64,000 nucleotides of DNA from Halapricum desulfuricans (GTDB taxonomy: Archaea; Halobacteriota; Halobacteria; Halobacteriales; Haloarculaceae): assembly GCF_017094525.1 (NCBI RefSeq), contig NZ_CP064788.1:1-64000 (forward strand), read 5' to 3'. Position 1 is the stretch's first letter, and each line of letters opens with the position of its first letter. The notes beneath the pieces were generated by a model. That model was given only the letters and a program-made list of their open reading frames with translations. It had not been told where the DNA came from and ran no database searches. This document shows, piece after piece, positions 2,840 to 6,422 of this stretch. Made by a program: the position numbers and the translations under genes.

Positions 2840-4507
2840 GTGCCTCTCGAGACGCCCGCCCGGATCGTCAGTGAACTCGCGTCCCGCGGCTACAACGCCG
2901 AACGCGATGCCGTGACGCTGCTGGCCGACGCGCCGGACACTGACGCCGCTCTCGATCGGGCCCTCGAAACGCTCCCCGACGACGCACTCAAACTGCGATC
3001 CGAGCACGTCCGGGACGCACTCGAAACGGACGACTCGAAACGCTCGCTCGGCGATCGGTCGCTCTCCGACCCGTCCCGATCCGAAGCGACCGCGTCCCCG
3101 GACTCCGACGCGACTGTCGATCGTGATTCGCCGTCTACTCCCGAGCGCTCGGCTGGGCCAACGACGGACAACACATCTGTTTCGACTGGAGAGGAACAGC
3201 CCCAAAATCAAAATACAGCTACAACTTCTCCAGTTGAAACAAGAGGGGTCAGAAGTTCCGATTCTGACCGACAGACGAGGGGCCGTGAAATCGATCCCGA
3301 CCGGCTTTCGGTCGAGATCGACGGCGACATGACCGGCCAGTCGACCGGGACGGGCGAGTACAGCGATTTCGTCGCCGTCTTTCGAGATCGATACGAACGC
3401 CTCTCGAAGCAGCTTCGCGGCCGGGTCAACCACCGCCCGACCGACGCGCTGGAATCGCTGCCCGGCAACGAGGACGCCGCAGTCGTCGGGATGGTCTCGG
3501 ACATCCGATCGACCGCCAGCGGCCACTGGCTGATCGAACTCGAGGACACCAACGGAACCTTTCCGACGCTGGTGATGAAAGACCGGCCGATCGCCGACCT
3601 CGTGTCCGAGCTGTTGCTCGACGAGGTGATCGCCGTCGAGGGGACGCTTGCCGACGACGGTGGCATCCTCTTCGTCGACTCGCTGCACTTCCCGGACATT
3701 CCCCGCACCCACGAACCTTCGACCGCGGATCGACCGGTAAAGGCCGCCCTCATCAGTGACGTCCACGTCGGGAGCCAGGAGTTCAAAGCCGACGCCTGGC
3801 ATCGCTTCGCCGACTGGCTCCACACCGACGACGCCGAGGGCGTCGAGTATCTGCTGATCGCGGGCGACATGGTCGAGGGCGTCGGCGTCTATCCCGATCA
3901 GGACGAGGAACTGGACGTCATCGACGTCTACGACCAGTACGAGCGCTTCTCGGAGTACCTCAAGGAAGTGCCAGGCGACATGGAAATCGTCATGATTCCG
4001 GGCAACCACGACGCCGTCCGCCTGGCCGAACCCCAGCCCGCCTTCGATTCGGAACTCCGACAGACGATGTCCGCCCACGACGCCCGTTTCACCTCCAATC
4101 CTTCGCTGGTCACGATCGAGGGCGTTTCGGTGCTGATGTATCACGGGGTCAGCCTCGACGAAGTGATCGCCGAACTGCCCGACGAGAAGGCCTCCTACGA
4201 CGAGCCGCACAAGGCGATGTATCAGCTCCTCAAGAAGCGCCACGTCGCCCCCCAGTACGGCGGGCACACGCGACTTGCACCCGAAACGAGGGACTACCTC
4301 ATCATCGACGAGGTCCCGGACGTCTTCCACGCCGGCCACGTCCACAAACTGGGCTATGGCAAGTACCACAACGTGTTGACGATCAACTCGGGCTGCTGGC
4401 AGGCCCAGACGGACTTCCAGAAGAGCGTCAACATCGACCCGGACGCCGGGTTCGCGCCGATCGTCGATCTGGAGACGCTGGAGCTTACCGTTCGGAGTTT
4501 CGGGTAA
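2840..4507 (+). CDS. polB: DNA polymerase D small subunit DP1 (exonuclease)
   Basis: This ~555-residue protein is the proofreading 3'-5' exonuclease subunit of archaeal polymerase D. The C-terminal calcineurin-like phosphoesterase domain shows ISDVHVGS (about 305), AGDMVEG (about 341), PGNHDA (about 388) and GHVHKLGYG (about 500), the metal-binding set. The middle carries an OB-fold, and residues ~60-160 are a disordered Ser/Thr/Asp linker. A GTG start at 2840 gives MPLETPARIV, the expected N-terminal helix. It is divergent from the signal peptidase gene. The large subunit is not in the window. Presence beside orc1 and PCNA elsewhere in the window marks this as core replication territory. Confidence 0.92.
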   Translation: MPLETPARIVSELASRGYNAERDAVTLLADAPDTDAALDRALETLPDDALKLRSEHVRDALETDDSKRSLGDRSLSDPSRSEATASPDSDATVDRDSPSTPERSAGPTTDNTSVSTGEEQPQNQNTATTSPVETRGVRSSDSDRQTRGREIDPDRLSVEIDGDMTGQSTGTGEYSDFVAVFRDRYERLSKQLRGRVNHRPTDALESLPGNEDAAVVGMVSDIRSTASGHWLIELEDTNGTFPTLVMKDRPIADLVSELLLDEVIAVEGTLADDGGILFVDSLHFPDIPRTHEPSTADRPVKAALISDVHVGSQEFKADAWHRFADWLHTDDAEGVEYLLIAGDMVEGVGVYPDQDEELDVIDVYDQYERFSEYLKEVPGDMEIVMIPGNHDAVRLAEPQPAFDSELRQTMSAHDARFTSNPSLVTIEGVSVLMYHGVSLDEVIAELPDEKASYDEPHKAMYQLLKKRHVAPQYGGHTRLAPETRDYLIIDEVPDVFHAGHVHKLGYGKYHNVLTINSGCWQAQTDFQKSVNIDPDAGFAPIVDLETLELTVRSFG

Positions 4508-4565
4508 ATCTTATAACACCGGTCTCAATCGTCGTCAGCGGTGTACAGGCGGTACAAGGCGACTG

Positions 4566-4640
4566 CCCCGGGGTCGTCCGGAAATCGGAGATTTCCGTGA
4601 TCATGAGAATCAAAGATTCTCGGACGACTTGACCCCGGGG
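4566..4640 (+). repeat. Left 75-nt structured repeat of TnpB element 1
   Basis: The outer stem pairs CCCCGGGGTC (4566-4575) with GACCCCGGGG (4631-4640). Inside are two hairpins: CGGAAATC-GGA-GATTTCCG and GAGAATC-AAA-GATTCTC. The right copy at 6076-6150 has the same length and architecture, with different but still pairing stem bases. It could be an end structure bound by a transposase or an omega-RNA-like scaffold. Confidence 0.85.
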
Positions 4641-4658
4641 TTGAAGCCGACAGCATTA

Positions 4659-4844
4659 ATGCACAAAATACGCTCCAAAACACTTTTTGAGTTTCAGAAC
4701 GTATCAAAACGTGTGTCAAAACGATATACAGTGACAGTCCCAGATGAAGATGGGGAGTGGCTTGATGACCAGCCTCATCTCTCACCGAGTGGACTGCTAC
4801 AAAAAGCAATCCAAGAACAGCGAGAAAAAGAAGAATCTGACTAA
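4659..4844 (+). CDS. Small hypothetical protein upstream of tnpB
   Basis: This 61-residue frame (MHKIRSKTLFEF...) starts just after the left structured repeat and ends 5 bp before tnpB, so the two are probably co-transcribed. The sequence is basic at the N-terminus and acidic at the C-terminus, with a predicted strand-helix pattern (KRYTVTVP then SGLLQKAIQEQ) that loosely recalls small DNA-binding accessory proteins found beside haloarchaeal tnpB genes. I do not recognise a named family. The ATG at 4659 is chosen because it follows the repeat boundary. Confidence 0.5.
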   Translation: MHKIRSKTLFEFQNVSKRVSKRYTVTVPDEDGEWLDDQPHLSPSGLLQKAIQEQREKEESD

Positions 4845-4849
4845 CCACG

Positions 4850-6142
4850 ATGAAACACACGCTTCGCTTCCGTGCGTACCTTTCCGACGGCGTGGCGAGC
4901 GAAGCGTGGCGGCAAATCGACATTCTTCGACAGATTCGCAATCACGCTGTCCGAGACTACTATAGTAGTGACTACAACAACCGGCCATCCGACTACGACC
5001 AACACGACAAACTCACCGAGTGGACAGACCGTTGGCTGACGTTTGCCGAACCCTCGCAACACGCCGCTCAACAGGCCATAAGCCAAATCCACGACGATAT
5101 TAAGACACTCCAAGAGCGGCGAGACGAAGGCTACGATGTTGGGCGGTTGCGGTGGCAAGGCAAAGGTGAATTTCGGTCAGTGTCGTACAATCAGTCCAGT
5201 CGCTTCAACGTGGATAACAACACGGGCAACGATCGATTCGTGCGACTTCGACTCGAAAAGATTGGCTGGTTCAAGATTCGAGCAGAACGTGACGTACCAC
5301 CAGCAGACGACATTGATGAGGTTATCCTCAAGAAAGAGACAACTGGTGAATGGTATGTCTCACTCGTGACCACTGTGGAAGACACGCCCGAGAAACCGCC
5401 GCTCAGAGACATTGACCCCGAGGACTGCGTAGGTGTTGACCTTGGCATTACCAGCTACATCCACACCTCGGAGAATCTGTCTGTGGACACGCTTGACCTG
5501 TCCGATGAGTACGACCGCTATGCACGCGAACAGCGGAGACTCGCCCGGAAAGAACATGGCTCTGCCAACTGGGAGAACCAACGTCGGAAGGTCGCACAAG
5601 CAAAACGGACAATCAAGCGGAAGGTGCGAGACTACCAGCATAAGTTGACGACGTGGCTCGTCACAGAATACGACGTTGTGGCCGTTGAAGACTTGAATGT
5701 GAAGCCGATGCTGGAAACCAGTCAGAACGCCAAAAACAAGCAAGACGCCGCGTGGTCGCAGTTTCTTGAATTGTTGGAATACAAAGCTGACCTGCACGGC
5801 ACACACGTTGTGGAAGTGGAGCCAGCAGGCACGACGAAAGAGTGCGCTGTGTGTGGTGTCGAAACAGCCAAGCCACTCTGGGTACGCGAACATTCCTGTC
5901 CGGCGTGCGGCCACTCGCAAGACCGCGACCTGAACGCGGCGAAGAATATTCTCTCTCGTGGTTTGAAGCAGATAGGGGCGGGACGCTCCGAATCAACGCC
6001 TGTGCAGACTGCGCTCCCTACGTTCACACCTCAGCGAGAGGTTGTGGATGCAAAGCGCGTCGTTGAAGCAGGAAGCCCCGGGGTCGTACGGAAGACATCG
6101 TCTTCCGTGATGACGAGAGACGGAGTCTCTCGAACCACTTGA
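4850..6142 (+). CDS. tnpB: TnpB family RNA-guided nuclease (element 1)
   Basis: This 430-residue protein is a TnpB (OrfB) nuclease, the family that cuts DNA guided by an omega-RNA from the element's 3' end. All three RuvC acidic positions are present: Asp in GVDLGIT (about 194), Glu in AVEDLNV (about 277) and Asp in QDRDLNAAKN (about 357). A four-cysteine zinc ribbon (CAVCG ... CPACG) sits between the last two. The last ~20 codons are read through the right 75-nt repeat, as expected where the guide RNA overlaps the 3' end of tnpB. It looks intact and potentially active. Confidence 0.9.
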   Translation: MKHTLRFRAYLSDGVASEAWRQIDILRQIRNHAVRDYYSSDYNNRPSDYDQHDKLTEWTDRWLTFAEPSQHAAQQAISQIHDDIKTLQERRDEGYDVGRLRWQGKGEFRSVSYNQSSRFNVDNNTGNDRFVRLRLEKIGWFKIRAERDVPPADDIDEVILKKETTGEWYVSLVTTVEDTPEKPPLRDIDPEDCVGVDLGITSYIHTSENLSVDTLDLSDEYDRYAREQRRLARKEHGSANWENQRRKVAQAKRTIKRKVRDYQHKLTTWLVTEYDVVAVEDLNVKPMLETSQNAKNKQDAAWSQFLELLEYKADLHGTHVVEVEPAGTTKECAVCGVETAKPLWVREHSCPACGHSQDRDLNAAKNILSRGLKQIGAGRSESTPVQTALPTFTPQREVVDAKRVVEAGSPGVVRKTSSSVMTRDGVSRTT

Positions 6143-6150
6143 CCCCGGGG
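6076..6150 (+). repeat. Right 75-nt structured repeat / candidate omega-RNA scaffold end
   Basis: The outer CCCCGGGGTC/GACCCCGGGG stem is identical to the left copy. The inner hairpins are CGGAAGAC-ATC-GTCTTCCG and GAGAGAC-GGA-GTCTCTC. Compared with the left copy, several stem positions are changed on both sides so that pairing is kept. The tnpB stop codon lies inside it. By analogy with known TnpB elements, sequence starting at 6151 would be the guide. Confidence 0.75.
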
Positions 6151-6155
6151 TGGGT

Positions 6156-6422
6156 TCACGCACCGCCGCGGCGTTTGACTCGCGCTACGACCATCCGCTG
6201 TTCGTCCGACTTGAACGCCACTGAAAGTCTGAACCCACCGACGCGGACCTTCTTGTAGGGGCTGTTTTGGAGCGGCTCCCCGTAGTCCGGTGGATCTCGC
6301 CACGGAGAATCGACGATTTCGTCGAGTTTGTCGAGTATCCGGTCCTGTTCTTCGGGGGTGAACGTAGCGAGATCCTCCTCTGCGTCCGTCGCCAGTTCCC
6401 ACTCCCAGCCGTCGTCACTCAT
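6156..6422 (-). CDS. RelE/ParE-type toxin
   Basis: This 88-residue protein has the short RelE/ParE-fold layout: a helical N-terminal half (EEDLATFTPEEQDRILDKLDEI), then strands with KKVRVGGFRLSVAF and a basic end (VARVKRRGG). Family members act as ribosome-dependent mRNA interferases or gyrase inhibitors. Its ATG overlaps the end of the upstream antitoxin gene by 8 bp, the usual translationally coupled antitoxin-first arrangement. The stop lies 6 bp beyond the right repeat of TnpB element 1, so the mobile element landed immediately downstream of the pair without breaking it. Confidence 0.8.
   Translation of the reverse strand: MSDDGWEWELATDAEEDLATFTPEEQDRILDKLDEIVDSPWRDPPDYGEPLQNSPYKKVRVGGFRLSVAFKSDEQRMVVARVKRRGGA

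What the first reader, a model, noticed from the sequence alone, without database searches (positions are those of the whole stretch)
4566..6150. Two diverged 75-nt repeats at both ends of a TnpB element keep identical folding by compensatory changes
Both copies are exactly 75 nt with the same outer CCCCGGGGTC/GACCCCGGGG stem and two inner hairpins. The hairpin stems differ (GGAAATC/GATTTCC versus GGAAGAC/GTCTTCC; GAGAATC/GATTCTC versus GAGAGAC/GTCTCTC), yet each difference is matched on the opposite strand. That is covariation within one locus and implies selection for structure at the left as well as the right end. Only the right end is expected to be an omega-RNA scaffold, so the left copy may be a second guide-RNA-like scaffold or a paired transposase-binding end.
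Basis: partly seen in the sequence, partly recalled or inferred. Interest (0 to 1): 0.78.

Follow-up and report, generated by a model that had tools for sequence, protein, structure and literature searches.

The report
Tiny mobile hairpins inside transposon ends
Both ends of a gene-scissor (TnpB) jumping element in a salt-loving archaeon carry, in the loop of their terminal hairpin, a 54-base hairpin-pair repeat that is itself mobile and widespread; the matched changes belong to that hitch-hiker, not to a second guide RNA.

Summary
Two 75-nt copies (4566-4640, 6076-6150) share an outer stem and two inner hairpins whose differences are matched. Empty sites place the element at 4547-6159: an IS200/IS605 (IS1341-type) tnpB element with TAM GTGTAC. 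In 35 relatives both ends carry only a short palindrome, CCCCGGGG-CTTGA-CCCCGGGG. In the window, each palindrome loop holds a 54-bp insert at the same G^C step. A sister element with 99% identical TnpB lacks the left insert exactly, with identical DNA on both sides.

The insert looks like an independent small mobile repeat: two hairpins that are imperfect inverted repeats, no target duplication, G^C target in 191 of 202 copies. A model of the insert alone hits 355 of 392 genomes of the order. In this genome, 17 of 19 clear loci lie in IS605-type elements. Closest known kinds: SMR-A repeats of Haloquadratum (same target site, about twice the length) and bacterial REP-dimers/REPINs (same architecture).

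Stems are 97.7% Watson-Crick, with no excess of G-U (18) over A-C (28), so nothing points to RNA-level selection. The left copy is not a second guide scaffold; the outer stems are the paired transposon ends. What moves the insert is unknown.

The parts
4541..4546 (+). GTGTAC: insertion motif (TAM) just outside the left end
   Evidence: Empty sites in relatives read ...GTGTAC|GCACC... where the window has GTGTAC[element]GCACC.
4547..6159 (+). Complete IS200/IS605 (IS1341-type, tnpB-only) element, 1613 bp, no target duplication
   Evidence: Boundaries from empty sites L160-L162 and from the sister element L040 at another site, which matches the window only within 4539-6159.
4547..4565 (+). Left-end tip AGGCGGTACAAGGCGACTG
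   Evidence: Shared with other tnpB elements and, with variation, with solitary PATE-type copies.
4566..4573 (+). Left near-terminal palindrome, 5' arm CCCCGGGG
   Evidence: Short form CCCCGGGG-CTTGA-CCCCGGGG in relatives.
4574..4627 (+). 54-bp small mobile repeat in the loop of the left palindrome (subtype TCGTCC...GTGATCA...GGACGA)
   Evidence: Exactly absent in L040, whose flanks are 100% identical; 53 of 54 bases identical to the copies in the left ends of two other tnpB elements.
4628..4640 (+). Left palindrome, loop CTTGA and 3' arm CCCCGGGG
4659..4844 (+). Small accessory ORF, about 61 aa from ATG, function unknown
   Evidence: Conserved upstream of tnpB in some relatives (L040, L042, L044, L047); no Pfam match.
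4850..6142 (+). tnpB (430 aa), with RuvC motifs GVDLG, VEDLN and DRDLNAAKN and a zinc ribbon
   Evidence: Pfam PF01385 and PF07282; ISDra2 TnpB structure 8bf8 at E=1e-31. The insert adds 18 residues in frame before the TGA in the palindrome loop.
6076..6083 (+). Right near-terminal palindrome, 5' arm CCCCGGGG
6084..6137 (+). 54-bp small mobile repeat in the loop of the right palindrome (subtype TCGTA...GTGATGA...AACCA)
   Evidence: Absent from the right ends of most relatives, which read CCCCGGGGCTTGACCCCGGGG or a variant.
6138..6159 (+). Right palindrome loop CTTGA, 3' arm CCCCGGGG and right tip TGGGTTCAC
6160..6175 (+). Predicted TnpB guide: the first bases of the target site
   Evidence: The same bases directly follow GTGTAC in empty sites; guide role inferred from known TnpB biology; the 16-nt length is a working assumption.

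Best explanation
The two 75-nt copies are the left-end and right-end hairpins of an IS200/IS605 tnpB element. Each carries, in its apical loop, one copy of a 54-bp small mobile repeat, a REPIN-like, SMR-A-like element made of two hairpins. SHOWN: the insert lies at the same G^C step of both palindromes, leaves no target duplication, is present or absent independently at each end in relatives, and recurs with 98-100% identity in otherwise diverged left ends. It is spread through the haloarchaeal order and, in this genome, sits mostly in IS605-type elements (palindromes, PATEs, tnpB genes; tnpA elsewhere). The left and right copies are different subtypes and so were probably acquired separately. 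INFERRED: it is a non-autonomous element moved in trans by an unknown enzyme, perhaps a Y1 transposase acting on single-stranded hairpins. Its hairpins stay complementary because the DNA fold is needed for movement or because palindromes self-correct. In the right end the insert is presumably carried passively as a 54-nt extension of the right-end hairpin of the omega-RNA. The left end is not a guide RNA.
For: Exact presence/absence: L040 (TnpB 99% identical) matches window 4539-4573 at 100% and then resumes at 4628, lacking exactly 54 nt. Among 80 relatives, 35 have short palindromes at both ends; with the window included, inserts are found at the left with a short right end in 2, at the right with a short left end in 4, and at both ends in 3. 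Identical inserts (100% L229/L235, 98% window) sit in left ends whose downstream 70 nt are only 59-68% identical and whose TnpBs are 88% and 55% identical to the window's. Clean insertions occur outside palindromes: tnpB 5' part in L074, tnpB 3' part in L056/L077, tnpA in L331/L360 (gene identity read from the sequence). G^C flanks in 191 of 202 copies. A model of the insert alone hits 355 of 392 genomes of the order; in G000, 17 of 19 clear loci are in IS605-type elements. G-T 18 against A-C 28, so no RNA-strand wobble bias. SMR-A repeats target the same place (PMC3119063).
Against: No transposition event was seen between strains, so mobility is inferred from distribution. Within palindromes the orientation is always the same (the four apparent reversals are the same loci read from the other strand), which could also reflect one old insertion spread by gene conversion and PATE movement. 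Outside the palindromes there is no general preference for hairpin apices (mean rank 0.47 over 18 sites). A few double changes lie away from the loop (8 of 83 cells), so some selection on pairing is likely. The preference for IS605-type elements was measured in one genome.
Confidence: 0.88

Rival explanations
1. The left copy is a second guide-RNA-like scaffold, selected as RNA.
For: It folds like the right copy and pairing is conserved in the family. A PATE in a haloarchaeal virus is transcribed at one end (PMC10544981).
Against: Absent from the sister with 99% identical TnpB and from most relatives. It lacks the right tip and a guide. No G-U excess on the coding strand. The same kind of insert sits in tnpB and tnpA coding DNA.
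Confidence: 0.03
2. The whole 75-nt structure, inner hairpins included, is a paired transposase-binding end required at both termini.
For: Both ends carry it here and in L041 and L073; the outer palindromes are paired ends in the whole family.
Against: Most elements have only the short palindrome at either end; presence is independent at left and right.
Confidence: 0.05
3. The insert is old and not mobile by itself; it spreads among palindromes by recombination (gene conversion, or PATE and tnpB ends exchanging through shared CCCCGGGG and CTTGACCCCGGGG).
For: Uniform orientation in palindromes; PATE copies share the left tip and both arms, so one crossover each side would give the window's left end.
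Against: The same kind of insert sits precisely in unrelated targets: tnpB 5' and 3' parts, tnpA, and a different palindrome GGCTGTG^CCACACAGCC.
Confidence: 0.25
4. The compensatory changes reflect no selection, only DNA-level self-correction of short palindromes or block exchange of hairpin tops between copies (this concerns why the stems match and is compatible with the best explanation).
For: 75 of 83 double-change cells are in the two variable pairs of a 9-nt block; no single-pair intermediates AAGTC or AAAAC among 98 copies; loops occur as reverse-complement pairs such as GAA/TTC.
Against: Some double changes lie 13 nt apart (pair 9-23), and stems stay paired in all contexts.
Confidence: 0.4

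Closest known systems
SMR-A small mobile repeats of Haloquadratum walsbyi (HqIRS42, HqIRS43, HqIRS55; Dyall-Smith et al. 2011, PMC3119063)
   Same: Haloarchaeal, non-coding, inverted terminal repeats, no target duplication, many copies, inserted within the near-terminal palindromes of IS605-type transposons and PATEs; way of moving unknown.
   Different: SMR-A are about 110 bp; this family is mostly 54 bp (also 56-59, and about 108 with a second hairpin pair nested inside). Sequence identity to HqIRS42, 43 or 55 could not be tested (supplement not readable here).
REP dimers / REPINs, including CGTC-tagged REP dimers (PMC3733652, PMC3116915)
   Same: Two unequal short hairpins in inverted order, non-autonomous, heterodimers common, some families inserted within palindromes, one tail ending in CCA.
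   Different: Described in bacteria; tags GTAG or CGTC and stem rules are not met as such; loops mostly 3 nt; no dedicated RAYT gene was found here; nearly all copies in this genome are inside IS605-type elements rather than between genes.
PATEs (palindrome-associated transposable elements; PMC3119063)
   Same: Solitary copies seen here have the left tip, one palindrome and the right tip (TTCAC) and no transposase, like terminal-only PATEs.
   Different: The window element is a full tnpB element, not a PATE; many PATE-type copies seen here carry the 54-bp insert.
Omega-RNA right-end hairpin of haloarchaeal IS1341 elements (PMC12558985)
   Same: The right palindrome lies where that paper describes a right-end hairpin.
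   Different: The 54-nt insert extends this hairpin; most relatives lack it.

Membership tests
IS200/IS605 (IS1341-type) tnpB element | TnpB with RuvC motifs and zinc ribbon | tested here: met
   Pfam PF01385 and PF07282; 8bf8 at E=1e-31.
IS200/IS605 (IS1341-type) tnpB element | No target duplication, fixed motif on the left, palindrome near each end | tested here: met
   Empty sites; palindromes at both ends in 35 relatives.
SMR-A small mobile repeats | Insertion within near-terminal palindromes of IS605-type elements and PATEs | tested here: met
   156 of 202 copies at palindromes, counting the four strand duplicates, though that sample was partly gathered with palindrome-bearing queries; own-genome census with the insert-only model, 17 of 19 in IS605-type elements.
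SMR-A small mobile repeats | No target duplication | tested here: met
   L074, L056/L077 and L040 comparisons.
SMR-A small mobile repeats | Inverted terminal repeats | tested here: met
   TCGTNCG...CGNACNA; hairpin 1 and hairpin 2 are imperfect inverted repeats, and the model often scores on both strands of one copy.
SMR-A small mobile repeats | Length about 110 bp | tested here: not met
   54 bp in 169 of 202 copies of the two-hairpin form; a 108-bp form exists.
SMR-A small mobile repeats | Sequence match to HqIRS42, HqIRS43 or HqIRS55 | not testable with these tools
   The sequences are in a supplement that could not be opened.
REPIN / REP dimer | Two REP hairpins in inverted order acting as one unit | tested here: met
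REPIN / REP dimer | GTAG or CGTC unpaired tag at one end of each hairpin | tested here: inconclusive
   The C-subtype outer ends read GTCGTC.../...GACGAC; the A-subtype reads GTCGTA.../...AACCAC.
REPIN / REP dimer | Linked RAYT transposase | tested here: inconclusive
   Two Y1 transposase genes in the genome; no dedicated link was established.
TnpB omega-RNA at the left end | Conserved scaffold followed by a guide | tested here: not met
   Absent in L040 and most relatives; followed by TTGAAGCCGAC, not TTCAC plus guide.

The most novel reading that the evidence does not exclude
A haloarchaea-wide REPIN-like 54-bp parasite specialises on IS200/IS605 elements: it targets the hairpins of their ends, including the omega-RNA right-end hairpin, so it may be moved by their own Y1 transposase on single-stranded DNA and may tune or silence TnpB guide RNAs.
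Probability: 0.3. Interest if true: 0.62.

Novelty: new variant of a known kind. Interest (0 to 1): 0.42.

Why it matters
It turns an apparent second guide-RNA scaffold into a nested mobile repeat, a trap for anyone annotating omega-RNAs by covariation alone. It also gives exact ends, a G^C target and an order-wide distribution for a half-length form of the SMR-A-type repeats, whose movement was called enigmatic in 2011. That makes the question testable: does a Y1 transposase move them, and does a 54-nt extension of the right-end hairpin change TnpB activity?

Tried and rejected
Rfam search of the locus: no match; of relatives: one sub-threshold match, ignored. Promotion of the left copy to an omega-RNA: rejected because of the sister element and relatives. 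Selection for frame in the right end: the insert is 54 nt (a multiple of 3) in 27 of 29 right ends, but also in 26 of 29 left ends and 76 of 83 PATE-type copies, so coding does not explain the length. General hairpin-apex targeting outside IS605 palindromes: not supported. Reverse-orientation insertions: the four candidates were the same loci read from the other strand. The first tnpB-based and stem-containing searches were biased to IS605 elements; the insert-only model was built to remove that bias. No structure prediction was run; TnpB is well covered by solved relatives.

Full report
OBSERVATION. The window holds two 75-nt copies at 4566-4640 and 6076-6150, 77% identical, each folding as an outer stem CCCCGGGGTC/GACCCCGGGG enclosing two hairpins, far better than shuffled sequence on both strands. 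They amount to the second and third base pairs from the loop in each hairpin, one contiguous 9-nt block per hairpin.

THE HOST ELEMENT. The ORF at 4850-6142 is a TnpB with Pfam matches and a match to the solved ISDra2 TnpB at E=1e-31; the RuvC motifs GVDLG, VEDLN and DRDLNAAKN and the zinc ribbon are intact. Relatives with an uninterrupted toxin gene (RelE/ParE-like) show the empty site...CGGTGTAC|GCACCACCGCGGCGTTTGA (L162). The window reads ...CGGTGTAC[4547-6159]GCACCGCCGCGGCG. So the element is 1613 bp, starts at AGGCGG, ends at GGGTTCAC, makes no target duplication, and its predicted guide (6160 onward) matches the target next to GTGTAC. The sister element L040 in Halapricum hydrolyticum (TnpB 99% identical) sits at another site and matches the window only within these ends. 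The window genome carries two Y1 transposase genes elsewhere.

THE INSERT. Most relatives have a short palindrome, CCCCGGGG-CTTGA-CCCCGGGG or a variant, at both ends. Among 80 relatives, 35 are short at both ends; with the window added, two have an insert at the left with a short right end, four an insert at the right with a short left end, and three inserts at both. In L040 the left end is 100% identical to the window on both sides but lacks exactly the 54 nt 4574-4627. The second copy in the window's own genome (TnpB 90% identical) has the right insert but a collapsed left palindrome without it. The two-hairpin part is therefore an insertion at GGGG^CTTGA, present or absent independently at each end.

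THE INSERT IS A DISPERSED SMALL REPEAT. Three left ends (window, L229, L235) carry the same insert with 98-100% identity, although their downstream flanks are 59-68% identical and the TnpBs of L229 and L235 are 88% and 55% identical to the window's. Precise insertions also occur inside tnpB (L074 at GCGAAG^CGTGG, 58 nt; L056 and L077 at ACCG^CCTGTG, 54 nt), inside what reads as a tnpA gene (L331, L360), and in a different palindrome, GGCTGTG^CCACACAGCC (L351, L352, L358, L359). Over 202 copies the flanking bases are G^C in 191. Ends read TCGTNCG...CGNACNA, and hairpins 1 and 2 are imperfect inverted repeats of each other. Two subtypes exist: one with GTGATGAC in the centre and AACCA at the end (window right copy), one with GTGATCAC and GACGA, an almost complete palindrome (window left copy). 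About 108-nt forms carry a second hairpin pair nested in the linker.

DISTRIBUTION. A covariance model of the insert alone (R2) hits 355 of 392 genomes and 89 of 95 genera of the order. In the window's genome it gives 19 clear loci (E below 1e-5, overlapping hits merged), of which 17 by my reading are in IS605-type elements (tnpB end palindromes, PATE-type copies, tnpB genes). In Haloquadratum J07HQW1 the same 54-bp insert sits at a similar position in several different tnpB genes.

RNA OR DNA? Pairing in the two hairpins is conserved well beyond shuffled and slid controls. But 75 of 83 double-change cells fall in the two variable pairs next to the loop-closing pair; arms jump between whole alleles (AAATC, AAGAC, AACTC; AGAGAC, AGACGC, AGAATC) without single-pair intermediates, and loops occur as reverse-complement pairs. 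Of 3232 pair cells 97.7% are Watson-Crick, 18 G-T and 28 A-C (two-sided p 0.18). An RNA made from the coding strand would tolerate G-U but not A-C. The constraint therefore looks DNA-level, or is partly a by-product of block exchange or palindrome self-correction. I cannot separate these further.

HOW IT MOST LIKELY WORKS. Shown: paired IS605 end palindromes, each carrying a 54-bp repeat of a different subtype at the same G^C step; no target duplication; strong association with IS605-type elements. Inferred: the repeat is non-autonomous and moved in trans, possibly by a Y1 transposase on single-stranded hairpins, as proposed for REPINs (PMC3116915). In the right end it extends the hairpin that haloarchaeal omega-RNAs carry at their right end (PMC12558985) and adds 18 residues to TnpB before the usual TGA; in the left end it has no guide-RNA role. 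A recombination route (PATE ends exchanging with tnpB ends) could account for part of the spread within palindromes, since orientation there is uniform.

COMPARISON WITH WHAT IS KNOWN. Dyall-Smith et al. 2011 (PMC3119063) described PATEs, IS605-type elements with near-terminal palindromes, repeat-mediated core deletion to about 52-bp PATEs, and SMR-A repeats of about 110 bp with inverted terminal repeats and no target duplication that insert within those palindromes; they called the movement enigmatic and suggested that SMR-A inactivates these elements. The present repeat works like an SMR-A but fails the length feature in its common form, and sequence identity to the three SMR-A families could not be tested, so it is filed as a variant. 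In architecture it resembles REP heterodimers, some of which also sit inside palindromes (PMC3733652).

VERDICT. Real observation; the left end is a transposon end with a nested mobile repeat, not a second guide scaffold. Moderate interest.

Noticed in passing
window 4525-4543 (-) and 6156-6422 (-): The element interrupts the last codons of a RelE/ParE-like toxin gene; the remainder (YTADDD) is left beyond the left end, and the right tip supplies a new stop, so the toxin loses only about 6 residues.
   Followed up: partly
window 4659-4844; L043, L046, L048, L053 upstream of tnpB: The small ORF upstream of tnpB comes in two unrelated kinds in elements with 86-89% identical TnpB: a MazE/AbrB-like protein (PF04014, E=4.6e-9) or the unclassified ORF seen in the window, as if the accessory gene were exchangeable.
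   Followed up: partly
L065 near 3212-3300 (right end): The right palindrome holds a different insert of similar length with two hairpins (AAATCAC.../GGGAAATC...), at the same loop position: perhaps a second family of small repeats with the same target.
   Followed up: no
L362-L369 (Haloquadratum J07HQW1): Nearly identical 54-bp inserts at what looks like the same place in seven or more different tnpB genes, near the codons for SESTPVQT, suggesting a second preferred target site in tnpB.
   Followed up: partly
L311 and L312 (G000 416457 and 501142): Two related tnpB genes in the window's genome carry the same diverged insert inside the coding region after ADLTA.
   Followed up: no
L004, L008, L009, L045: About 108-nt inserts in which a second two-hairpin unit is nested in the linker of the first, flanked by repeated GAT or GATG: a nested arrangement of repeats.
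   Followed up: no
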